Positions 1,549 through 50,100 of a stretch of 64,000 nt of DNA are shown here, in pieces (position 1 is the first letter of the stretch; each line of letters opens with the position of its first letter). The stretch is from Paramacrobiotus metropolitanus (lineage: Eukaryota > Tardigrada > Eutardigrada > Parachela > Macrobiotidae): positions 1,116,001 through 1,180,000 of the forward strand of contig NW_026570234.1 in the NCBI RefSeq assembly GCF_019649055.1. Reading direction: 5' to 3'. Position numbers and translations under genes: made by a program. The notes below the pieces were generated by a model. It had not been told where the DNA came from and ran no database searches. It saw only the letters and a list, made by a program, of their open reading frames with translations.

Positions 1549-3096
1549 ATGGAAATTCCTAACTTACTTTACGGTTCTTTACGGAACAGTTATGTGATAG
1601 TGGCGTTCTTCGCATTGGTTTCAGGTAAGCGATTTACGAACAACGGTTACACAGGCGACAGAAAATCTCTTCAGCAGCCTTGCAAAATTTCTTGATATCC
1701 GCACAGTCTTTGGAAACCTCATATTTCTCTGCGCAGGGTATCATTCTCCGAACGCAGAAAAGCTTACCACTTCATCCAGCAAGGGTTCGCCGTGGTCGTC
1801 CAACAACGGCAATGTCCAATGGATGTCCATGCAAAACTCCCCCTTTCCGGTAATCGCCGCGCCGATGCGCACCCTGAGAATCTTCTGCTGGCCGGGCACA
1901 CGACGCACCATGCAGTCGTTATTCTACAGCGCCTACTTCAAGCTGGACATCGAAGATGAAGCCTTCCATCTGTACCGTGGAGCGTCCTCCGAAGAAGTGG
2001 AAAAACAGTACAAATCCGCATCACGCTGGTTCACGCTGCTGCCCTGGCGGGATCGCAGCATCCGTCTGAACCCATTTACATCGACCTGTCTGGGCGTGGA
2101 TACCAATAAACCGTACGTACTCACCTTGAAGATTGTCCCCGTGGATCCGTATCGTTTCCTCGCTTTTCTGACGGGCGCTTGTCTGCTGTTCTTTGCGCGA
2201 CGAATGAGTCGTAATACATTTTTCCATTATTCCTCCGGGATCAGTATTGCGCTGGTAGGTTCATTGTTGCTGGCGGTGTTTTAATCAGCCGAATGATTCC
2301 GCGGAAAGCGGCGGGGATCTCGTTTCTGGTCGGCGGTTGGGCGGTGGTGATTTATTTTCTCCAGACTTTGTGGAAGAATTTTCGGGAGACCATTTACGAT
2401 CATCGCAATTATGTCGTGGCGTATATTATCATCGTCTCGACCATCACCTTCATGCTGATTTATCGCTTCGGCGGGATTCGCAATCCGAAGACGATGGATA
2501 TTCTGCAGTGGACGCTGCAGATTGTGGGCGCGCTGATTATGTACTTCAGCGTGACGATTGAGCCGATCGGTATCGCGTTGATTTGCGCTGCCGCCGCGTT
2601 TGATATGATCATCCATAGTGGGTATAATTTCCGGCGATTTAAAATTATTAATAAACTCTTCCCGCCTCGACCGCGCAAACTGCTGTCACCCGATGAGTTC
2701 GAAGAGGTGGGACGACGGGAGACAGCCAAAGAATTGAAGAAGCTGCGGGAGTATGCCAATAGTCCCGAGTGTAAGTCATGGTCATTGGTAAAGCGATTGA
2801 GCAGTCCGTCGCGGTTCGGTTCGTTTGTGGAAGACGGTACGCATCTTTCGCTAGATGAGGTGGACACGTATGAGCGGGAAGTGTCGTTCAGTGGATTTGA
2901 CGATGAAGACGAACCACCGGCGTCGGCGCCCGTGCAGCCGCGCTTCTCCTCATCGGCCAGCTCGCATTGGCGATCACATCGGAATAGTCCATCACACCAT
3001 CGGAATAGTCCGCTGCGATCGGCGCACTCATCGCCGTGGAATCGACATGGGAGTCAGAACGGGAATGGAGTGGATGATCTGATGGATTATGAGTAG
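1549..3096 (+). CDS. NEMP1: Nuclear envelope integral membrane protein (NEMP/TMEM194 family), with a 1-base frame break
   Basis: NEMP proteins span the inner nuclear membrane and support nuclear-envelope stiffness and fertility. Exon 1 (1549-1624) encodes a signal peptide ending FFALVS. The intron 1625-1736 has GTAAGC and TGCGCAG ends. Exon 2 (1737-3096) holds a luminal domain, then several membrane spans including FLVGGWAVVIYFLQ and LQWTLQIVGALIMYF, then the diagnostic nucleoplasmic block from LLSPDEFEE through NSPECKSW to FVEDGTHLS. The Ser/His-rich tail ends at a TAG. Family length is about 440-480 residues; this gene gives 478 if one base is added. The frame is broken at 2279-2284: it ends SLLLAVF-stop, while the next frame continues LISRMIPRKAAG, exactly as the family requires. 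One extra T in the run of four T's restores continuity. I judge this a sequence error or a recent mutation, not an intron. The 3' end converges on the BK-like gene. Confidence 0.9.
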
Positions 3097-3426: not shown

Positions 3427-6400
3427 TTACTCTTTTGAGCTTAAGAAAGCCGCTAGCCCAAGAGAGGGATCTCTTATTGGTTGGTCATTAAAATCCGGAC
3501 GATCCAAACTGTAGATCATATCGGTGGGATCGAGAATGAAATCTTCCGGTGGATTGCAAATAACAAAACGCTTCGCTGCTCTCGAGCTGTCATCTGTTGG
3601 GTCCATCTTCCGGTAGACACCCAGGCATAATCGGCCGAATGTTACCAGTGCATCGATAAATAAACCGCCATACGTCGACTCCTAGGATAAAAAACCAATT
3701 CATGAATTAAGCTGCTAATTTGTATTTATGGGCGATGTCCCTGATGCTGTTGTATAATGTGTTCTTACCGCATGCACCGATAACGGTCCGGAAGAAATTG
3801 AAAACTGGTTTACTATAACTTGATTTTTCACCATTGCGGGTTTGGAAATATTGGCACCGCCGATCATACCTATAGATAAAACGATTATAAAAGTTATGCA
3901 CACCGTATGGACACAAACATGACATTTGCAACGAAAATTTACCGGCTCCCTCGGCAAGAATCTTTTCCAGTTCCAGCGATGCCCCACCGAAAATCATGGT
4001 GCGGAAGACGTTGACGATAACCGGGTTAAAAAATGACGTTATCATCAATAAATCCAGCACAGTGCCAGAAAAGCACCGTCCGCAGGCATAAGGCTGTGTC
4101 ATGTAAAACTCCGTTCCTGGAAGGTCATCGTCATCCTGATCCAGAAACTGCGCATTGGTATCCCGCACTAGTAAAAAGGTACAGTTACGGCCACGGGTAA
4201 TGGAATGACGGAATCAGGCAGATTTGTAATGCAAAAACAAAACAAAAAAAGTCAAAAAGATAGTGGAAAAACAGGTGGCACTGAAATTTGGAAGTTTAAG
4301 TGAAGTAGCGTTTACCAGATTTAAAAAACGAGTATGAGTTTCGTTTACAGTTTACAAGCTCCAGCTCGTATAGTTTACAGTGGTCTAATTAATTACGTAG
4401 CGTATATTTTAAATTCTAGTTTAATAATCTACCGTTAAAGAAAACGTTACAGCAGCTCATCTGCTAAAACAAGCACTAAAAAAGAGGCATTCATTTACAC
4501 GCGACGCGGCTCGTGTTGGAACTTGGAACAGGGACTACAGAGTAAAGACCACAGACCGGTAACTACAGACCAGTCGTTGCGACCTTTTTAAGAATTTTGT
4601 GTACCTACGGACCGACTTCCCTAGACCCTTTCTCCTTCCCAAAGACCGACCGACATACCGTATATTATGTCGAACGAGCCCAAAAGCATTATTAATCTGT
4701 TAGTTGGCATATCAGTCTGACATAATAATATTAGTCGTATTTGTTGCGGCAGTAGATTACTCTGTACTCACGAATATCCGTTATGAGCGGCACTTCATAA
4801 CCAGTTTGCCGGGCTCGCGTCTTCAGTGAAATTCTTTGTTGGTACATGCTTTCGGTTTCGGAAATGGAGCCGACTTCGCTCGCGGCTGTAAATCAGAAAA
4901 GCCAGATATTATGATATTTTCTTGTCGCCCATGTTTCTTCAAAAAACAGAAGCTGTTCAGTGTTAGTACTTACGATTTGACTGAAACATTTCTACGGCCT
5001 CTTCTTCGGAAAATCTCATAGCGCGCACATTGAGAGTAGCCAGAATTACCGCTTTATCGATGAGCGCATTGTCGACATTCTGCATTTGAGCACCGGAACT
5101 CGGTGCGCCGATAATCACGCACATTTTACAAGTGTTGAGTGTGACCGAACGCAGGTCAGCCCGATTTAAAGCGGTGCCCTGCAAAAGAATTGATCTAGTA
5201 ATTATATTACCAAAAAAATTTAACGTAACTTACTCTAACGACATGTATTCGAGGCAAGTTCAGAAGATATGTCCATTCCTACAATAAAAATTCACCGGCT
5301 CTGCTAAATGGACGAGGATAATGACAGTAGAAAAGCCGAAGCACCTTCTTCATAAAACTGTGGTCACTCAAAATGACAACATCGCGAAGCTCCCGTGGTT
5401 TCACAACACTGGATCGTAAAGGTAGAATAAAACTGTGCAAACCAACGATCTGAGATCCCGGTTGCGATAAAATGCAAATAACGATGTGCCCGCTGAATTC
5501 CGCCTTAGCCGCTTGTTGTCGCGTCTACAGAATGCAAAGAGTAGGCGATGTGTTTACTTAATTTAATGTGTGAATGACTCTATTACACACAAATCTGATA
5601 ACTTTACGATTAATTATGCATACATACAGCGCACAGGTGCAATACTGAACGTGGAATAAAAATTAATTTCATGAAAAGTCACACAAACCATCAAAACGGA
5701 TTCCAGAGGTCGTCCTGCAACGGAAACACAATGATCAGAAATTAAATGCGCTTTTATTTTAACTTTAACAAATCGTATTATATACCTGAACACCAATGGA
5801 ACATGCCGGTGCTGTCGTACATCGCAGGCTGCTCGTTTAGGCGTTCCATTAAAGAATCACCCGTGTCCATGCCTTCCAGTTGCGGCTCCTTTGCGCCATC
5901 GTTTTTAACAGAACGCGGTGGTCTAAAGATTTTAATTAAATTACACCATATCACATTGTTTTACACATTTTTTGCGTGTGCCGTATATTGAGGATACCGG
6001 TAACTGTGTTGTAGAAACACAGAGATTTACTAGCATGAAAAAACACAGATTTACAGAAAAACTGAAAGCCATTAAATGGCAACACTACGTACGATGTTGG
6101 GTATCGCCTGATGTACGACCAGATTTTTCCTTCCAGTACATCATCCCGTCGCTTGACACCTACGGCTTGCTGGGCCTCCACACGTGCCGATACCAGATTG
6201 TACAAATCGTTTGCTTTGCCCTGTTCCTCGCTTTCCGCTAGCATATTGAATAAATTTAATATGAATTTGAATTCCTTTCTGAATAAATCATGATCGCGTC
6301 GTACCCCGGCAAGCACACTTTTTTATTTGATTGGGGTCATCCACATCACGGTGACATGTGGCGCAATAGTAAATGGCTCGCTCCACTTCTTCGGTAGAAT

Positions 6401-9400
6401 CGGCAATAAAGTATCCAATGCTTCCGATCTGGATTGTGCATTCTGATGGATTGACTTGCGGCATGCTAGCTAGATCATAGGGATCGGTCTTCACAGCCAC
6501 CAAAACGATCTTCAATCGGAGGTAACAGAATCTAGGAAAACGCGAAAGAGATTTAGTGATTGTTGTGACTCGCGGAGAAACCGGGTATTCCAAAATACTG
6601 ACATAATTATTTGCAGCGAATTTTACCTATATATATTGTTAGCATTTTTATTTGAGCTTGGGCTTAAAGTTTAAAATGCATCGGTAAATTTTCTAGCTGT
6701 TTTTGAATGATTACATGTCATCTGTGAATCGGAATGATACTAATTTTCTATTCAAACTTTATCTGCTATATAACCTATATTGAGTTCAATGATGATCAGT
6801 CCAGGAATAAAAAACATACTCGCTAGCTTGGGTAAATGACATTCCAGCGAAGGCGTCACTCAGTCTGCGCGCATACATTTCCAATGATGTGCCCCGCGCA
6901 TAGTCGATCATCCATGCGTCTTGATACTGTAGGCAATTCGTAAAGGTCAGTATCAATTAAGGTGTACGTACGAAACCAGGTCATATCATATCAACGAGAC
7001 CACAAAATTTAAAAAACCTTGCGGCATTATTAAACAGCACCTTTTTTCTTTCACTGAATGCTCGTGTTGTGAAAAAATTTGCCATCAGGGTGGAAAAGCC
7101 GGGAGCGTAGCAGCTCTGCGCGAGAAGTCCGAGACGGAGCTCAGCTGTAATTTTGTAAATCATTCACGATCAATACAGTTGGAGCGGTACGTTTGCGTGC
7201 GAAATCCGATAAGCTTAAGCCAGCCCACAAGGAAATGTCAACAATAAATTGCCAAAATCACGACGTAGAAAATGAAGAAATAGAAAAAAATGAAGAAAAG
7301 CCTGAAAAGGCAGGCGCCTTACCAATGCAAATGACCAAATCGCCTTGTTGTACATTCCAAGAAGGAATATTTTGTAGATATGCCTGTAACAAAGCTATAA
7401 GATTGCCGAGAAAAAAATGATAATGTTTGTTTAAAATAGTTAAAATTTAAAATTCAAATTTAGACACAAATCGAAGTTTTAGCGTACATACCTTGTTATG
7501 GTACTGTAAGATTTGCACAATGACACGGGCATTGTCTTTAAAGTTCTTGATCGATACAACTCTCATTATATTAACGGCATCCTCAGCGTCCGATTCTGCG
7601 GCAGCTTTGTCCGCCACCAATAATGTCGCAGCGGCCTCGAACAATTTGACTCGATTGATATCCAATGCACTGAGAATTGAGCCACGGCGGTAGTCCGCCC
7701 GATTGAAGAACTGTTTCATCAGACGTTCCATGGATTCGTCCGGTGGTTTACTGAACATAACATAAAATGTATAACTGGCGTTGAACGTCATATGTTTCGT
7801 CGACATACTCTCCCAAAATGACGATTTTGAAATGTTCGCTGATGTCACGATCTGGATGATAGAATTCTCGTAGAAACGCACCCACGGATGGGCTGGTCAC
7901 ATGACCGGAAATGATGATATGCCTAGAAAATAAATTTACAAATTTGATGTAAATTTTTTGGAAAATTTTGAGCGTTTTAAGATAGGAAAACTCAAAATAT
8001 AGTTGAAAATAAGTTTTTCCAGACTTTACGAGCAAATCTGCGAGCAGGAAAAACTACGATGATCCCTGATTACATAGGTACAAGAGGATGCGAAAAGTAA
8101 CAGGCACGCTTTCACGTCAGTCTTACAAAAATCTTTCCGGTGCAATGTAGTCTTTGTCGTACTCGGGAGTGATTTTTAGGAGCGCCACAATTTGTGGAAT
8201 CGCACGACCGATAATACCCTGAAAAGAGCCATGTTTATCCAACGCTGCACCAAAACCGTTGCATTAAATTATCATTATTAAATTATCATGCAAGAAAACA
8301 TTTTTTGTTGAAATATGGGATCAAACTGTTACTTATCGTTCCTTTTAACTTTACTACAAATTGCTGTTCAAACGACACAGGTATTTTCTGGGAGTTGTGC
8401 CACTGTGATTTACCAATGCAATCAACTGGAAGGCATAGATGATAAGCTTGCCCAACTTGGTTTGTACTCGAATACCGCTGAGGTCAATGAGAGTAACTTT
8501 GCCGTACAGATACAGGAAGCACCGCCAAAACGACACCTGCTGACCATCAAATGAACCTTTGGGAACCAGAGGATAAAAATCTCCTTGATTTTCCACCTGA
8601 AACATTTAGCGATAGCGTTGCGAATCAAATTGTTTTTCTCGAACGAAGCCGACTATAACCCACCAAATGCAGGAAACCCGCAGCAATTAATAAGGTCACA
8701 ACCACCAGCGTCACCAAATACGTTAACTTGATAGCGTTGACCGTCCGGAATACACCTACAAACATTATGAAAGTACGATCACAAATAATTGTATTATGTA
8801 CAGATACGAGAATGTGCACTTGCTTAACATTCTGCACAAAGGACGATAAAGAACATGCCATAAATTGCAACATTTCATTAAATCGGGATCTATTTAATAT
8901 TTAACTCAGTATTTAACTCAAAGTGCAGTGACGTGTACGATATACAGATTGTTTGTTCGTTTTGGATTTAGACGTACCTCTGTTTGTCAGTACGTCAACG
9001 AGCCATAGAAAGTTGTAGGCACGGCCAAAATTAAAACCTGCAAAACCATTGATCAATTTAAATTAAAGTTGTCGATTTTGTGACTGTTATAAATAGCGAG
9101 AATGTCATCGGTACCGGTGAAATAGCGGTCCAGACATGCTCCAATAATGACAGCAGGGATGGTGAAATAGTCGACTGCAAGATAATGTTTCAAGTTTTTT
9201 GTGGTACAGGATATAGCCAAACCAGTTGTTCTACATTAACATATATCATTACGCGAACGATCGTCTATTGTCTCACATCCGACTACGCTGCTAAACAATT
9301 GGCCATACCTATTGAATAAATGTCTATTAAAATTTTGAACTTCTTTTCGTTTCCGATAATCTAAAAAACACAAGAAATCACATAAACTGGCGAATATTTA

Positions 9401-11103
9401 CCGATCTTTACATTCGATGCATCCGACCTATGATGTATATGTAATATTAAATCATTCGACATTCGGACACATGATTCCGATGTAAAAATTAATTCAATAA
9501 AACTAAAACTTTGAAAAACAAAACTATAAATTATTTACCCGAACTATAAAATAGAACAGAAGGAACAAGTTTGCAATCAAGTCGATAATTTGAAAACCAT
9601 TCGGCAATGTTCCACACCACTCGAGACTGGGCAATTCTCTGGAATAACAAAAATTCAAGCATCGAATAACAACAAAAATACTTGTAGCAGCAGCATACTT
9701 AGAAACCTTGGAGAGGTAAATGATCAGCGATATCGCCGCGCAAACCAATGCGATGCTCATCTATGAAACAAAAAGTTTATAATTAACTGCCAGGAATGTC
9801 ACATCACTAGTTACTTATTAATATGCGAAGATCTTAACGAATTTCAGCTTAGAGAATAGTAATACACATGATATTGTGCCTACCATTGATTGACCGGGTT
9901 TTGTTTGTGGAGAAGAAGCATCAGCAATCCATATGGATAATTTTGACCGGTTTTGACGTTCGTAGACCAACATTTTAATCTTATCCATGTTCTGATTTTT
10001 TTGTGTGTTGTCCGTGAATTCAACATCTTCATCTTCCAGGCTTTCGTATTCTTTCCGTTGTAAGATTTTCTTACGAATAACTCGACTAATCCAACTTAGC
10101 AGGACGTAAAGGAAAGCCAGCACCGGTATGATGAAGCCGCATGTGACATACAGTTTGATCATGCTTGGCCGACCAACTTGATAACATGGAGCAGGAAGTC
10201 TGCATAGCACAACAAATTATTCCTACTGTGACTAAAAATGGCAATGACCGCGCTTAGTACAAATTGATGAGATAACATACAATTCTAGATTTTATCATTT
10301 TATGCGTAGAAACACCAACAAACGCTTTATATTTGAAGTTATGGAAACTCGTGGAATCTACGATTTATGTTTTCAGTAGTTCCATAACGTAGTACTCCGT
10401 AATTTGATTCAGTGTTTAACTAATTACTATGAAACTACGTATTTTCAACAATATTTTTACAAGTTGTACTAGTCGTTTACAGATAAAACGCTGGCTCGGA
10501 AAATTTCACAAAAAATTCGTCTCAATGTGATGATTTATGACCTGCTTACTCGACATCCGCATAATTCAGCGTGCTGTTGGTGATCCCGGTACTGTTGGTG
10601 GTGGTGTTCATAGCTGCGGTGGTCATGGATGTCGTCGTTTCCAAAAACCGTGTGGTCAGCTGCGTAACGAAGTTCTGGTAGTGATCCGGTGGGATATTAT
10701 ACTGGTCACCCTGCCCCCATGCCGGCCCGCCGCCCCAACTGTCTTGGGGCGGCGGTGCCTTGGGCGAATATCCGCCCTGACCTGCTGCACCTGCACCTCC
10801 ACCGGCCGCTGCAGCACCCATGAAGCCACTGTCGAAATTATTTCCAGAGAAATTCCCTGCTGCTTTGCCCATTTGTTCATTCATGAAGTTTCCCCCAAAG
10901 GGAGTACCGGCAGAATTATCGGTGTCGGCAAAATCCTGGAATCCACTAAATTGTCCCTGACCGGATGGAGAAGCGGATGCGGGGACGTTCATCTGACCGT
11001 TCATTTGACCGGCACTGGCCGCCCCCGAATTCGGACCTGCGCGATGGTGATAGTTATCCCCCGCATCAGTGTCGCCTCCATAACCCGGTCTCTGACGAGA
11101 CAT
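3427..11103 (-). CDS. Slo1/BK-type calcium-activated channel paralogue with a degenerate K+ filter
   Basis: Exons (minus): 11103-10550, 10199-9884, 9760-9699, 9638-9539, 9360-9309, 9174-9115, 9037-8978, 8755-8664, 8596-8414, 8218-8127, 7922-7809, 7750-7492, 7383-7323, 7144-7041, 6926-6820, 6531-6305, 6237-6093, 5922-5786, 5714-5689, 5524-5345, 5278-5234, 5178-4974, 4885-4772, 4167-3943, 3869-3769, 3681-3427. All phases agree, giving 1,291 residues without a stop. Order: a 185-residue Gly/Ala/Asn-rich N terminus, S0 (about residue 205), S1 (about 295), S2-S4, S5, pore exon (433-493), then two RCK domains. Blocks matching Slo1 include [45 protein letters not shown] and the calcium bowl around FLDQDDDD (1106-1113). 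BK channels open K+ pores on depolarisation and Ca2+. Here the filter TVGYGD is LIDLSG (468-473) and S4 keeps one of three arginines. Family assignment is firm; K+ conduction by a homotetramer is doubtful. Confidence 0.93.
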
Positions 11104-27585: not shown

Positions 27586-28516
27586 TCACTACGGTGTAAC
27601 AATACAGATTTCTCAATAATATGCCATGTACGCTACAAAACAGTTATGCTATGCGATTGTCGGAACCCGCGAGGAGCGCTGGCGTTTACGTTTTCTTCTC
27701 CCAAACATGCGGTTGTGTTGTATGCCAAAGTAACGGTCAGCAGGAAAACCACTTCAGGATTGCTAATTATTCGAAAATGCGCCATGTAATTGAAGCATAT
27801 TCACCGGTGCTCTTATCAGGCAGCGTGAAGACGAAAAAAGCGCTCCAGCTTGGCTGTGCGTCGGCACTTTTAAAATTGCTTGTGACCAGTGCTGTCTTGC
27901 CGGTATGACACATGTTGTAAGCTCCTTTTTCAGTCCCGAACAGTTTCGTGGTTTGTGATTCTTAAATAACTTTTTACCAAAGAAATATGCCCAAGCGAAT
28001 TGAATCTACTTAAAATTAAAAATTCCAAATAAGTAAAATAAAACATAATTGTGTACTGTAGATTGTAGAAGTACGTACGTAAATACTCGTATACCCGTTG
28101 ACGTGTTATCACTAGTTATGCCTGGATTCGGCAAACACTTTGCCATTTCATTGCAGAATTTTATTTTCCGAGCTACGTATTAAAATAAAGTATACGGAAT
28201 TATTATTTCTTCTGTCGCTTTTCACCGGTTTTGGTAAAAAAGAAGACTGCTAACTGCGTAAGCATAAAATAAACGATACGCGCATGCATTACGATGAATA
28301 GCCCAAGGATACGTTACTGTACGTGGTGGCATGTCAAACCAATTTTTTTGCAGAGCACGCATCTCGTAACACTGACCGAAATTATTGGTGCCACGTTTTT
28401 GTTTCCACTCACGCTGGATCCAGCTGTCATCGCAGTGGAACAGGCCTATATTTTTCTGTGTTGATTTTTAAATCCCTTTAATATTTATCCCATTTTAATT
28501 TACCACCATCACCGAG
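27586..28516. other. Shared upstream region of the GPI-like and GT31 genes
   Basis: About 960 bases separate two divergent start codons. Overlapping short frames at 27499-27908 have no resemblance to known proteins. This is likely promoter and leader sequence; I see no clear TATA box. Confidence 0.4.
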
Positions 28517-30212
28517 ATGGCACCCATCCCCACCAAACTGCTGATCCCCCTGATATTAGCGCTGATCTTCATCGCTGGTTTTTTCATGGGAAATTTCAGC
28601 TCTTCAGGCCCGACACGTGTGGTGCTGCGGGACGGCAGTGGTCAGACCAACAACGAACTACCCCCGTCCGATGAATTCCCTGACACTACGGACGAGTACG
28701 GCCGCATTTTGGTGGATCTGTCGGCGCCCATTCCCACGCCCCCCTCACTGACCGTGCTCAGTAATAAAATCGATCACGAGCCCCCCTCGTGCACCTCCTT
28801 CGAGCAGGTGGCTAAACCCTCCAAATTCACCTTCGTCATCTTCATTTTCACCTGGGCCAAACAAATTGAACGCAGGAAAGCCATGCGCGAGACGTGGGGC
28901 AGTCTGGCCACCACGGATTGTGGGTTCCGTTTGATCTTCGTTTTGGGGCTGCAGAATGAGACCCCGGGGACGCAGGCGGAGTGTAAAAAGATCCAAGCGC
29001 ATGTCGACGATGAAGCGCGACAGTTTAAGGATATTCTACAGTTTGGCCATTTTATTGACAACAGTCGGACGTCCACGCAGAAGGCCACGATGACGTTCGA
29101 GTGGAGTCTGCGCGAGTGCCCCAATGCGGAGTACACGCTCAAGGGGGAAGATCATGTGTGGGTGAATCTGCCGGATTTCACCAAGTGGATTAAGGAGCAG
29201 AAGGGTGATTCTATTATGGGACATCGCGTTTACGGAGGTAGTGTGGTGTTCCGGGATCCGCAGAGTTTCTTCTATGTGTCCAGGGATGACTGGATCGACG
29301 ATACGTATCCCGAGGTAAATCAGACTGAACTTGCTTATTGAAGTGCACGTTGTGATAATTCAGTTTCACAATTTAGATTCTAATCGAGAATTGTTTCTTT
29401 TGAAAGAATTTTCGTTCTTTATTTTTTCTTGCATAATAGTTATTTGATAACCACATTGTACCACGTACAATAACAGCTCCGGCTTGTTTACAAACTATTT
29501 TGCTAGATTCTGCTATCCTTCGTGGAGTTTACTGAGTTGCTCAAAGGGATTTTTCAGTTATCGAATTAGGTTAGGGTTCAATTCAGGGTTTGAGACAGGT
29601 ACTTCTGGTGCAAATTCTTACGTTTTAGGCTAATTAAAGCGTCAGAAAATTTTTTGCAGTGATGTGATGTTAAACGATGTATAAAAGGATAGATTTATTT
29701 TGTAACTGCACACAAGTGGCTAGGCTTGTTTAGCGAGTGAGAATTATTATTTTGTTTGAAACATTGTTCATGGCTTGTGCTGAGTTATGTATTCGTGTCC
29801 CTGGAGAAGAAATGGTTTTCGTGTCGCTGTACAACATCCGACATAGCAGCCATCTTCTGGTGTATTTTTCCTCTTTTGTACAATCTGCATAACTTGAATT
29901 TTATTTTTGCAGTACATGACAAGTATGATGTACGCTATCCCGCAAAAGATTCTCAAAACTTTGGTGGACAAAGCCAAAACTATGAAGCAAATGCCACTGG
30001 AGGATGTTTTCTTCACCGGCATCGTGGCCGACGCAGCCAAAGTCCCACGACTGAACCATGAATCATATGAATATGATTATATAATTGACAAGAATAAAAA
30101 GATCGGCTGTCCGAAGAAGGACCTACTTGCTGTCCGCTACATGCCACCAACGGAGCAGTATAAATACTGGGAGGATAAATGCCACACAATAACTAAGCCA
30201 TGTTTTGCGTAG
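28517..30212 (+). CDS. GT31 (beta-1,3-galactosyltransferase-like) type II Golgi protein without a DxD motif
   Basis: Exons 28517-29314 and 29913-30212 join in phase 0 (GAG|GTAAAT and TTTTTGCAG|TAC) and give 365 residues. The N terminus has a type II membrane anchor (residues about 8-25), then a Pro-rich stem. The catalytic region has the GT31 signature RRKAMRETWG (119-128), the CPNAEYTLKG block (201-210) and, in exon 2, PLEDVFFTGI, equivalent to the EDVYxG motif. GT31 enzymes transfer Gal or GlcNAc from UDP-sugars using Mn2+ held by a DxD motif. Here that site reads GEDHVWVN (210-217), in place of the usual TDTD or TDDDVFVN. Length fits the family. The protein could use a non-canonical metal site, be inactive, or belong to a divergent clade. 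An AATAAA lies at 30559-30564. Confidence 0.8.
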
Positions 30213-47101: not shown

Positions 47102-50100
47102 TTATAAGTCTTGTTGGTCACGGTTCATGCGCGATCGGACGGTCGGCGTAACCGGTGCTGAGTTACCACTCGCGTACGAAAATGCCTGATCCCTCGACGT
47201 TGAATCCATTGGACTCGTACAACATTTGTGGAACTGCAGCAGTTTCCGGAACGCTTTGCGAAAGTCTTGGTTGAAAATTGAATAAATAATGGGATTAAAA
47301 GCAGAATTACCTAAAACACACAGTTCATGTGTGCTTTCTATAATTACCATACACAAGTGATACAACATAAATAATATAAACTACTTACAAATTAATGCGA
47401 CGCGATCTCAGCCGCTAAAGCATAAGAGTATCAATGACTATTAAATTTACTGGTTGTTTTGATTTATCCCTTTAATTTTTATTAAATTTGCGATATTTTA
47501 TTATGATTTTATCTAACTGACACAGGCCTAGGCAGCTTGCGCGGTACGTATTAGACATTTTGTTAAAATTTTGAGTACTGAGTTATACGTATATCTAAAT
47601 TGTTCTGCTCTGGGGAATAGTAGTACGTATGGTTAACCTTTCGGGATACCGGTGAATAATGTGACATAAACCGGCTGTATCTGTAAAGCCTATACGGTCA
47701 TGGGATTTGCGAAAAGTCCCTGATCCAAAAGTAAATCAAAAACCCATCGCTAATTCGCGCCCAGAGAACGCATTCATCCGATGAGGCATGCCGCCGCGAA
47801 ATCCATATCGCGCTTTATGCGCTTTCCGGTGGGACGAGGGATTGTCGGCGGCAGCTCTGTTTGCTACGTAATCTACACACCGCTATCGTCTGCTTTCCTG
47901 CCCATGATTTTGTAAACACTCTGATTATTTTCCGGCGTTTGCCGAATGTTCAGTTAAATTCGGGTGATAAAACGAGATCCGTGGTAATCTTTAATCGTAC
48001 GCAACCCGGTTACCGGCTCATAATGCTTCCCGTATTGATAGATTTAAAGTCATTATAACGTTCACTAGGATAATAGAAATACCTCTGTAGCACTGGATTT
48101 GCAATAAAAAATACATAATCACCAGTAATATTGTCACGCTAACCAAGCAAGAAAAGTCGTTTATCGTGGAGGCTGATCCGGTTGAAAAGTATAACAGCTT
48201 TCGCACAATCGCTTGTGCCTTGCAATGGTTTTCAGATTTTCGCTTGTTTTCGAAACCGCAGCTGAGAAAAAATGCTAGTCAACATATCCTGTTTCAGATC
48301 GTTTATATATATTTGTGTAATCGATAATTCGGTAGTCGTTGTTCGGATTTCATCCATTACATGTTAACAAGATCGAAAGGCAAAATCCCAAATCGTACAA
48401 TAGTCCAGTTACCTCGCTTTTGCAAACAGACACTGCTTTTGTCAGTAGATTCGTGAGCTGAGTTGTCACGATTTCGGCTTTGATTTCCGAAAATATATAT
48501 GCTCCCCAAAACAAAATTGTAAAAACAGGGCGCATGACACTGTGCTGATTTCCTCGAACGCCTGTTCATACGTCAATATCCTAAACTAATATATTAATGA
48601 GTTAAATCTCTTGATAATTTTCGGTAACCGTTCGTGGTTCAATGTCGGCATGATTTTTAAAAACAGCGGCATGTCAAAATTTAGTTAAAAAATTGACTGG
48701 ATCTGCATACAGCATTATGTAACTAGCAATTGAAAAATTAATACGAATAATTACATTAATTAAAACTAATTACACATTAAATAAAACAGTACTCATATAT
48801 GTGGACTTACAGTATCCTAACCAGGTTAGGGCTTTGAAGGTCATCATCGGAATACACTGACAGTTGGCGTGTATGATGTTTATGGCGAAAAACGGGGCCA
48901 AACAAATCAGGAAAACACTAACGATGATGCCCAGTGTTACCGCTGCTTTATGTTCGGAGATCATACGATTTTGAGCATTAGCCACAGCATCGGATATGGT
49001 GCGCTGTCGGGAGCCATTACTCCCGCGATTATTCCGACTGGATAGTCCGGCCGTGGTGGCCTGCAGCTGATTGTTGGATGCCGTGGTATTGCAGTTGTTG
49101 TAATACACAATATGTGCCATCTCTTTGACACTCTTCACGTGTCGGCGCGCTTCAAAATACAGCCGCAGATAGATGAAGAGCATAATCAGACAGGAAAATA
49201 AAAACTGATAATGGAACTGGTCAGCGCGTACATGGGGTTGATCTCCAGATTGCACTGGAAGAAGGCATCACTGCCGTCAACGACCGCCAACGGCTGCACG
49301 ATACCGTTGTCAACGCGGCTGTCGTTATTACTGGCCGCCAGTGACTGCATGTAGATGAGAATTTCCGTTACATTGGAGCGCATATCCGACGCGCTCAGCG
49401 CCGTGTCGGCTTGTTGCAATGGTTTATGCCATCCCAGATTCAGCGGGACAAAGGATATTAATGTCGAAAGAAACCAGATCAGAATCACAGAGGGAATGAC
49501 GACCCGCGGCGTTACGGTGGCGCTGTAGTGGAGTGGATCTTTTATGTGGATATAACGATCCAAACTGATAGCGCACAGGTTCAGTATCTGCAGAAAACAC
49601 CAGAAATACCAGGCGTTAATAACAACAAAGTTACGGGTAGGAGGAAGCGCTACAGTAAATGCCACTTCGTCATATTAATAACGCTTGAAAGTACGAATAC
49701 TCCAGCGAAGAATAAAAATCTCATACTTAATAGAAAATTCAGATATCAGGCTATCGGCGTTCAACAAAGCTATAGATTTCCTTGCAACAAGCGACCGGCA
49801 TATATAAACAATCCTTTTAGCTTAATCTTCGGCTTACGTATACGTCTAGAAAGACTTTTTTATATAAAATAGTATTTTTGTAGGTACTTGCTTGCCTAAA
49901 TTATATACAGTAAATGTTTACAAAAATTGTACTGCAAAACTTTTACTGTATTTTAATTTTGATTAGTATAAATGCAGTCGGGCTTTTTTAATCACGAATC
50001 CGGATCATTCCTTTGCATACATATTCAGTGCACTTCTATAGCGTAATTTTTCCTTTGACGGTTTACTTATGAATAAATTCATGACTGGTAAGGCAAGGCT

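What the first reader, a model, noticed from the sequence alone, without database searches (positions are those of the whole stretch)
8474..8491. BK-family channel whose K+ selectivity filter is replaced
The pore exon aligns with Slo1 without gaps from the W-x-C pore helix start to LGKL. At the filter, T-V-G-Y-G-D becomes L-I-D-L-S-G (residues 468-473). Both filter glycines and the Tyr are gone. Exon phases, frame and flanking pore-helix/S6 text are intact, so this is not a misread exon or a shift. A channel of this family that keeps its whole architecture but not the filter is either non-conducting, altered in selectivity, or only active in heteromers.
Basis: partly seen in the sequence, partly recalled or inferred. 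Interest (0 to 1): 0.85.

Follow-up and report, generated by a model that had tools for sequence, protein, structure and literature searches.

The report
Tardigrade BK channels with rebuilt pore
Water bears carry a family of relatives of the calcium-activated BK potassium channel in which the part that normally selects potassium was replaced long ago by a different, strictly kept sequence, which suggests pores that do something other than pass potassium.

Summary
The window (tardigrade Paramacrobiotus metropolitanus) holds a complete 26-exon BK/Slo1-type gene on the minus strand (11103..3427). At 8491-8474 its filter TVGYGD reads LIDLSG (residues 468-473); no alternative TVGYGD exon was found in the gene. 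It is neither an oddity nor a decayed copy. Four other loci in this genome, three Hypsibius exemplaris proteins and one Ramazzottius protein share YG[KR]-x-[TS]-h-h-D-L-S-[GY]; eight more divergent loci keep YGK and the Asp. The nine DLSG proteins form one clade (100/100), in a tardigrade Slo1 group that also has canonical GYG members. The change reaches beyond the filter: pore helix and pore-facing S6 gain Lys/Arg, E321 is lost and S4 R213 is Asn, while most Ca2+-site residues remain. Against Drosophila Slo1 the pore is the least conserved of six segments (12/48); between Paramacrobiotus and Hypsibius orthologues it is the best conserved (45/48 for the window gene). Rebuilt once, then frozen, fits a pore with a new job: most likely a Ca2+-gated, weakly voltage-sensitive channel that is not K+-selective. 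Conduction, selectivity and expression are untested; a non-conducting Ca2+ sensor is the main rival.

The parts
3427..11103 (-). Complete filter-replaced BK/Slo1-like gene, 26 exons, 1291 aa (= P0002), start ATG at 11103, stop TAA 3429-3427
   Evidence: Exact spliced reconstruction of P0002, all 25 introns GT-AG; P0002 listed for P. metropolitanus on a contig of the same length as C14
8414..8596 (-). Pore exon, residues 433-493 (turret, pore helix, filter, start of S6)
   Evidence: 53/61 identical to H. exemplaris P0004
8474..8491 (-). Replaced selectivity filter L468-I-D-L-S-G473 (canonical TVGYGD); Asp470 at the first filter Gly
   Evidence: Asp in 17 of 17 D-class pores read
8498..8506 (-). 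Y463-G464-K465 at the end of the pore helix (YG[KR])
   Evidence: 17 of 17 D-class pores read carry YG followed by K or R; coordinates
8468..8470 (-). Arg475 after the filter (Y294 position, recalled mammalian numbering)
   Evidence: R/K in 8 of 9 DLSG proteins, Q in Ramazzottius; coordinates
8127..8218 (-). S6 exon: Arg498 at the pore-facing S317 position and Gln502 at the E321 position
   Evidence: R/K at 317 in 9 of 9 DLSG proteins; acidic residue at 321 in 0 of 9, at 324 in 2 of 9; residue numbers
8978..9037 (-). S4 exon: [11 protein letters not shown]207 position is Asn384, R210 kept (Arg387), R213 position is Asn390
   Evidence: R213 is N in 9 of 9 DLSG proteins, R in 8 of 8 non-tardigrade Slo1, but also not R in C45, C22 and C3; residue numbers
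7041..7922 (-). First part of RCK1 (exons 7922-7809, 7750-7492, 7383-7323, 7144-7041), with D367 of the RCK1 Ca2+ site (Asp548)
   Evidence: Pfam Slo-like_RCK and BK_channel_a
3430..4167 (-). End of RCK2 with Ca2+ bowl [12 protein letters not shown] (4150-4115) and Slowpoke_C domain

Best explanation
The gene is a member of a tardigrade clade of BK (Slo1) paralogues whose pore was rebuilt and has since been kept. SHOWN: the K+ filter is replaced in the genome by [TS]-h-h-D-L-S-[GY] after YG[KR]; the DLSG proteins group as one clade; the pore is the best conserved of six segments in the three Paramacrobiotus/Hypsibius pairs; most Ca2+-site residues are kept and S4 residue R213 is lost. INFERRED: the protein is a Ca2+-gated tetrameric channel with reduced voltage sensing whose pore is not K+-selective. 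Without the two filter glycines the K+-coordinating backbone should not form. The Asp at the first Gly position (a possible four-Asp ring) and the Lys/Arg five residues before it, a charged pair present in all 17 D-class pores read, probably set or brace a new filter. In the DLSG class the inner pore is electrostatically reversed (E321 lost, Arg/Lys at pore-facing S317), so which ion passes (Na+, Ca2+ or an anion) cannot be told from sequence.
For: Exact model; no alternative filter exon found; BK homology, best PDB hit Drosophila Slo at 2.9e-43; Pfam RCK, BK_channel_a and Slowpoke_C; three Hypsibius and one Ramazzottius proteins of the class; DLSG one clade 100/100, with two divergent-class rows 99/95; pore plus S6 identity against voltage-sensor identity in three Paramacrobiotus/Hypsibius pairs 45/48 v 70/115, 39/48 v 71/115, 45/48 v 78/116, and in the Paramacrobiotus/Ramazzottius pair 28/48 v 37/112, Fisher 9.6e-6, 0.017, 2.6e-4, 0.0047, but 12/48 between the window and Drosophila pores; window and Hypsibius tips 0.18 each, DLSG stem 1.63; dN/dS 0.055-0.12 in pore exons of six divergent copies, 7 usable of 15 pairs, all with dS above 1; Ca2+-site residues. 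R213 as the only S4 arginine carrying gating charge, the E321/E324 ring and pore-facing S317: passages of PMC4319557.
Against: No current, expression or tetramer evidence. Arg/Lys at the inner pore and loss of E321 would hinder a cation pore, and an Asp in the filter would hinder an anion pore, so the charge pattern points to no single ion and could mean a sealed pore. Conservation of the pore can also be structural. No canonical Hypsibius Slo1 was available as a baseline for the same distance; in canonical pairs outside tardigrades the segment is not the best conserved (Drosophila/Ixodes 37/48, Drosophila/Haliotis 32/48). In the Paramacrobiotus/Ramazzottius pair the turret (16/22) is better conserved than the pore (28/48). 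Voltage sensing may not be gone: R167, D186 and R210 are kept, and R213 is also lost in tardigrade copies with a GYG filter (C45, C22), so that loss is not tied to the filter change. Two of the nine DLSG rows (C120, Ramazzottius) are on long branches of about 2 changes per column.
Confidence: 0.55

Rival explanations
1. Non-conducting Ca2+ sensor: the tetramer forms, the gating ring senses Ca2+, but the pore is sealed by a Lys/Arg-Asp-Arg salt-bridge network and the protein acts as a scaffold or signalling subunit.
For: Filter glycines gone, basic residues at three pore positions and E321 lost; gating ring and most Ca2+ ligands kept.
Against: Pore helix, filter and S6 together are the best conserved of six segments in the three Paramacrobiotus/Hypsibius pairs; a dead pore would be expected to drift. 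The S6 proline is kept in 9 of 9 DLSG proteins.
Confidence: 0.3
2. Obligate heteromer subunit: works only with canonical Slo1 or between different D-class copies, altering permeation or acting as a dominant negative.
For: The same genome has 10 loci with canonical TVG[YF]GD filters (two of them near-identical) and 13 D-class loci to pair with; the RCK domains, which assemble BK (recalled), are conserved.
Against: Several pore positions changed charge at once, and a mixed filter has no obvious geometry (inference); no co-expression data either way.
Confidence: 0.13
3. Decaying copy, misread exon, alternatively spliced TVGYGD exon or assembly artefact.
For: None beyond the absent filter.
Against: 26 clean exons reproducing P0002, no alternative exon found, same filter in H. 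exemplaris, short branches of the window gene and its Hypsibius orthologue.
Confidence: 0.01

Closest known systems
Slo1/BK (KCNMA1, slowpoke) Ca2+- and voltage-activated K+ channel
   Same: Gapless pore alignment, S1-S6 homology, RCK domains, BK_channel_a, Slowpoke_C, Ca2+ bowl, D367/E535
   Different: TVGYGD to LIDLSG; R207/R213 lost; E321 lost; Arg/Lys at T284, Y294 and S317 positions; Pfam Ion_trans and Ion_trans_2 not detected at E 0.1
Tardigrade Slo1-like paralogues with canonical filter (P. metropolitanus C183, C45, C22 and others)
   Same: Same genome and family; C45 and C22 fall in the same tardigrade-specific group, and C45 and C22 too have lost R213
   Different: Keep TVGYGD, R207 and R210; C183 also keeps R213
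TRPV5/6 (T-I-I-D) and bacterial Nav/Cav (T-L-E-S-W) acidic filters (recalled, not tested)
   Same: An acidic residue after T-h-h or T-L, near the position that superposes on the first K+-filter Gly; a works-like analogy only
   Different: Unrelated families; following residues and surrounding pore differ; no structural test made
K+ channels with variant filters (GFG, GLG)
   Same: Pore-loop fold
   Different: Those keep TxVG(Y/F/L)G, called obligatory for all K+ channels in PMC12332018 (passage); here both Gly and the aromatic residue are gone

Membership tests
Slo1/BK channel family (by descent) | Sequence homology across the transmembrane domain and gating ring | tested here: met
   phmmer 2.9e-43 to Drosophila Slo; 35-37% identity over 98-99% of the window model to P0007, P0009 and P0015
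Slo1/BK channel family (by descent) | RCK, BK_channel_a and Slowpoke_C domains | tested here: met
   Slo-like_RCK with two matched stretches, BK_channel_a, Slowpoke_C
Slo1/BK channel family (by descent) | Ca2+ bowl and RCK1 Ca2+-site residues | tested here: met
   Window: Q889, D892, D895, D897, D367, R514, E535 kept; binding itself not tested
Slo1/BK channel family (by function) | Voltage-sensing S4 arginine R213 | tested here: not met
   Asn in 9 of 9 DLSG proteins
K+ channel | TxVG(Y/F/L)G filter | tested here: not met
   LIDLSG
K+ channel | K+-selective current | not testable with these tools
   No electrophysiology available
Pfam Ion_trans / Ion_trans_2 pore | Profile match | tested here: not met
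   Not detected at E 0.1 in P0002, P0004, P0006, P0121, P0122; detected in the control Ixodes Slo1 P0009
Acidic-filter cation channel (TRPV5/6, Nav/Cav like) | Ring of acidic side chains lining the filter | not testable with these tools
   Asp in 17 of 17 D-class pores read; side-chain orientation in a tetramer not modelled

The most novel reading that the evidence does not exclude
A K+ channel lineage evolved a new kind of selectivity filter, YG[KR]-x-[TS]-h-h-D-L-S-G, in tardigrades: Ca2+-gated channels built on the BK frame that pass another ion, possibly with the Lys/Arg-Asp pair replacing the carbonyl cage. The Asp design then multiplied to at least 13 loci in one species.
Probability: 0.5. 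Interest if true: 0.92.

Novelty: new variant of a known kind. Interest (0 to 1): 0.82.

Why it matters
The K+ filter is among the most conserved motifs in channel biology. A natural clade that replaced it, kept the Ca2+-sensing gating ring and then froze the new pore gives a direct test of how a K+ pore can be turned into something else. It also bears on osmotic and Ca2+ physiology in animals known for desiccation tolerance, though no link to that tolerance was tested here.

Tried and rejected
Alternative pore exon: none found. Pseudogene or retrocopy: 25 introns, open frame, short branches of the window gene and its Hypsibius orthologue. An early reading as a Ca2+/Na+ channel by analogy with acidic filters was toned down once the table showed Arg/Lys at S317 and loss of E321. 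AlphaFold2 of the Ramazzottius relative P0006 (22-row alignment, mean pLDDT 59, pTM 0.39) shows a helix at 361-373, a loop and a helix at 385-413 where pore helix, filter and S6 are expected (residues placed); Foldseek lists only Slo1/BK entries among the best 50 of 1262 matches, but TM-scores are 0.25-0.31 by query length, so it says nothing about filter geometry. The tree places the divergent D[VL]x class (2 of 8 used) with DLSG at 99/95 on a branch of 9.3 changes per column, so that join leans on a long branch and on the motif, which was left out of the tree. In the tree without them the tool warned that the long branch of C3 meets the DLSG clade, so the exact sister of DLSG is open. One clade of all tardigrade copies is neither shown nor rejected (p-AU 0.152). 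Left out: two of eight divergent pore exons (C103, C283) from dN/dS for unequal length, and 8 of 15 pairs had no usable dS. C11:18k has no usable C-terminal half in my model, C183 was trimmed at the RCK1-RCK2 linker, and the C45, C22 and C3 models contain some doubtful micro-exons. The trees hold 4 of the 12 non-D Slo1-like loci whose filter was read. Loci not read for a filter: C107:87k and 115k (not resolved) and weak hits such as C39, C7, C1, C87, C4, C40, C58, C15, C177, probably other channels. Only 120 of 891 homologues were listed, so D-class proteins outside tardigrades among the rest are not excluded. A search with the S4-S6 region alone returned four proteins including the query, all tardigrade, but it also missed P0001, P0003, P0005 and P0006, so its silence says little. 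The second homologue search returned two Paramacrobiotus proteins only. Papers: ten searches, open-access library only; those on tardigrades or filter loss listed four papers in all, none on filter-less BK by title and abstract start; one search listed 12 of 353. Passages of PMC4319557 and PMC12332018 were read; everything else was seen as listings with abstract starts.

Full report
WHAT IS THERE. The window is bases 1116001-1180000 of contig C14 of a 169.8 Mb assembly. The protein database lists P0002 of Paramacrobiotus metropolitanus on a contig of 1808999 bases, the length of C14. P0002 is rebuilt letter for letter from the window's minus strand in 26 exons with 25 GT-AG introns, 11103..3430, followed by TAA. 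Residues 468-473 at 8491..8474 read LIDLSG where Slo1 has TVGYGD, with no gap from the pore-helix tryptophan to LGK. A pattern scan found no TVGYGD-like exon in the gene. Pfam finds Slo-like_RCK, BK_channel_a and Slowpoke_C but not Ion_trans or Ion_trans_2 at E 0.1, both of which match the control Ixodes Slo1.

NOT ALONE. In the same genome I read a filter at 25 Slo1-like loci. Ten are canonical TVG[YF]GD: C183, C45, C22, C325, C14:1231k, C14:1074k, C24, C63, C16, C107:129k. Two are otherwise altered: C3 STIGGSE and C14:1307k ATIGSPD. Thirteen carry the Asp: five of DLSG type (window, C11:18k, C11:466k, C11:551k, C120) and eight of D[VL]x type (C46, C295, four on C105, C103, C283). Two further loci (C107:87k, C107:115k) could not be read and weak hits were not examined. 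H. exemplaris has three DLSG proteins (P0004, P0005, P0124) and R. varieornatus one DLSY protein (P0006) among those returned. YG[KR] with Asp five residues after the K/R holds in 17 of 17 D-class pores read.

ONE CLADE, THEN FROZEN. With the motif columns left out, the nine DLSG proteins are one clade at 100/100, in a tardigrade group (100/99) with C45, C22 and C3, while C183 joins arthropod Slo1 at 99/95. The tool warned that long branches meet around C3, so the sister of DLSG is open. With two D[VL]x proteins added the D-class is one clade at 99/95, but these two sit on a branch of 9.3. Three Paramacrobiotus/Hypsibius pairs and one Paramacrobiotus/Ramazzottius pair come out as sisters; Paramacrobiotus and Hypsibius belong to different superfamilies. 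Identity of pore helix, filter and S6 in the pairs is 45/48, 39/48, 45/48 and 28/48, against 70/115, 71/115, 78/116 and 37/112 in S1-S4 (Fisher 9.6e-6, 0.017, 2.6e-4, 0.0047). It is the best of six segments in the first three pairs but not in the fourth, where the turret is higher (16/22). The same segment shares 12/48 with Drosophila Slo1, the lowest of the six, where RCK1 shares 118/226. In canonical pairs it is 37/48 (Drosophila/Ixodes) and 32/48 (Drosophila/Haliotis), not the best segment. Pore exons of six divergent copies give dN/dS of 0.055-0.12 in the 7 of 15 pairs with a computable dS, all with dS above 1 and so rough.

WHAT CHANGED. In 9 of 9 DLSG proteins: V283G, T284K/R, G289D, Y290L, G291S, R213N, S317K/R and loss of E321; Y294 is R/K in 8 of 9; E324 is acidic in 2 of 9; R167, D186 and R210 are kept in 9 of 9 (mammalian numbering recalled). 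R213 is also Tyr, His and Tyr in the tardigrade copies C45, C22 and C3, so its loss is not tied to the Asp filter. Ca2+ sites: D367 is kept in 8 of 9 (Glu in Ramazzottius), R514 in 8 of 9, E535 in 8 of 8 with a letter, D895 and D897 in 7 of 8 (lost in C120), D892 in 6 of 8 with Glu in two; D362 is Glu in 9 of 9. A review states that R213 is the only S4 arginine contributing gating charge though not the only voltage-sensing residue, that E321/E324 form an acidic ring raising conductance, and that A313, A316 and S317 face the pore (PMC4319557, passages). In the two D[VL]x proteins aligned, positions 294 and 317 are not basic, 321 is acidic, D367 is Asn, and the Ca2+-bowl ligands are mostly gone, so the constant core of the D-class is K/R284 with D289, and Ca2+ gating is inferred for the DLSG type only.

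HOW IT MAY WORK. A protein under selection mainly for its gating ring would be expected to let its pore drift. Here the pore is the part that drifts least once the change was made. I therefore favour a conducting pore of changed selectivity, Ca2+-gated and weakly voltage-dependent (0.55), over a sealed Ca2+ sensor (0.30) or an obligate heteromer subunit (0.13). Which ion passes is not decided by sequence: Asp in the filter suggests cations, while the reversed inner charge suggests anions or rectification.

LIMITS. No expression, current or tetramer data. One search listed 120 of 891 homologues, and one search missed known members. Nothing on filter-less BK in tardigrades was found, which cover open-access papers only and were judged by titles and abstract starts.

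Noticed in passing
P. metropolitanus C3:427362-427532 and C14:1307192-1307371: Two more Slo1-like copies with other filter changes: STIGGSE and ATIGSPD in place of STVGYGD.
   Followed up: partly
C105:196-365k, C46:903k, C295:30k, C103:24k, C283:37k: A divergent, partly clustered Slo-like group (YGKLVFLDVTS type); two members are annotated as uncharacterized proteins (P0121, P0122), in which Pfam sees only Slo-like_RCK above its cut-off.
   Followed up: partly
P0123 (P. metropolitanus C11:551k) and P0124 (H. exemplaris): In both species the DLSG channel is annotated as one protein with PF02104 (SURF1, name recalled) as well, in the N-terminal part by my reading: conserved neighbours or a true fusion.
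   Followed up: no
P0004 residues 1254-1408 (H. exemplaris): The orthologue of the window gene ends in a RETREG/ARL6IP-like domain (Pfam 3.1e-07); that tail has no match at E 1e-3 in this window, so perhaps a gene-model fusion.
   Followed up: partly
C22:1251-1258k and C325:43k: Near-identical Slo-like pores with GYG, perhaps haplotypes or a recent duplicate.
   Followed up: no
C107:87k-129k: Slo-like copies; in at least one (129k) the pore helix appears split by an intron and the filter reads STVGFGD; two others were not resolved.
   Followed up: partly
window 2215-3093 (+), 28499-29338 (+), 48770-49674 (-): Other genes in the window: NEMP family, a galactosyltransferase-like stretch and a rhodopsin-type 7tm receptor. 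No Rfam match at gathering threshold in the window.
   Followed up: no
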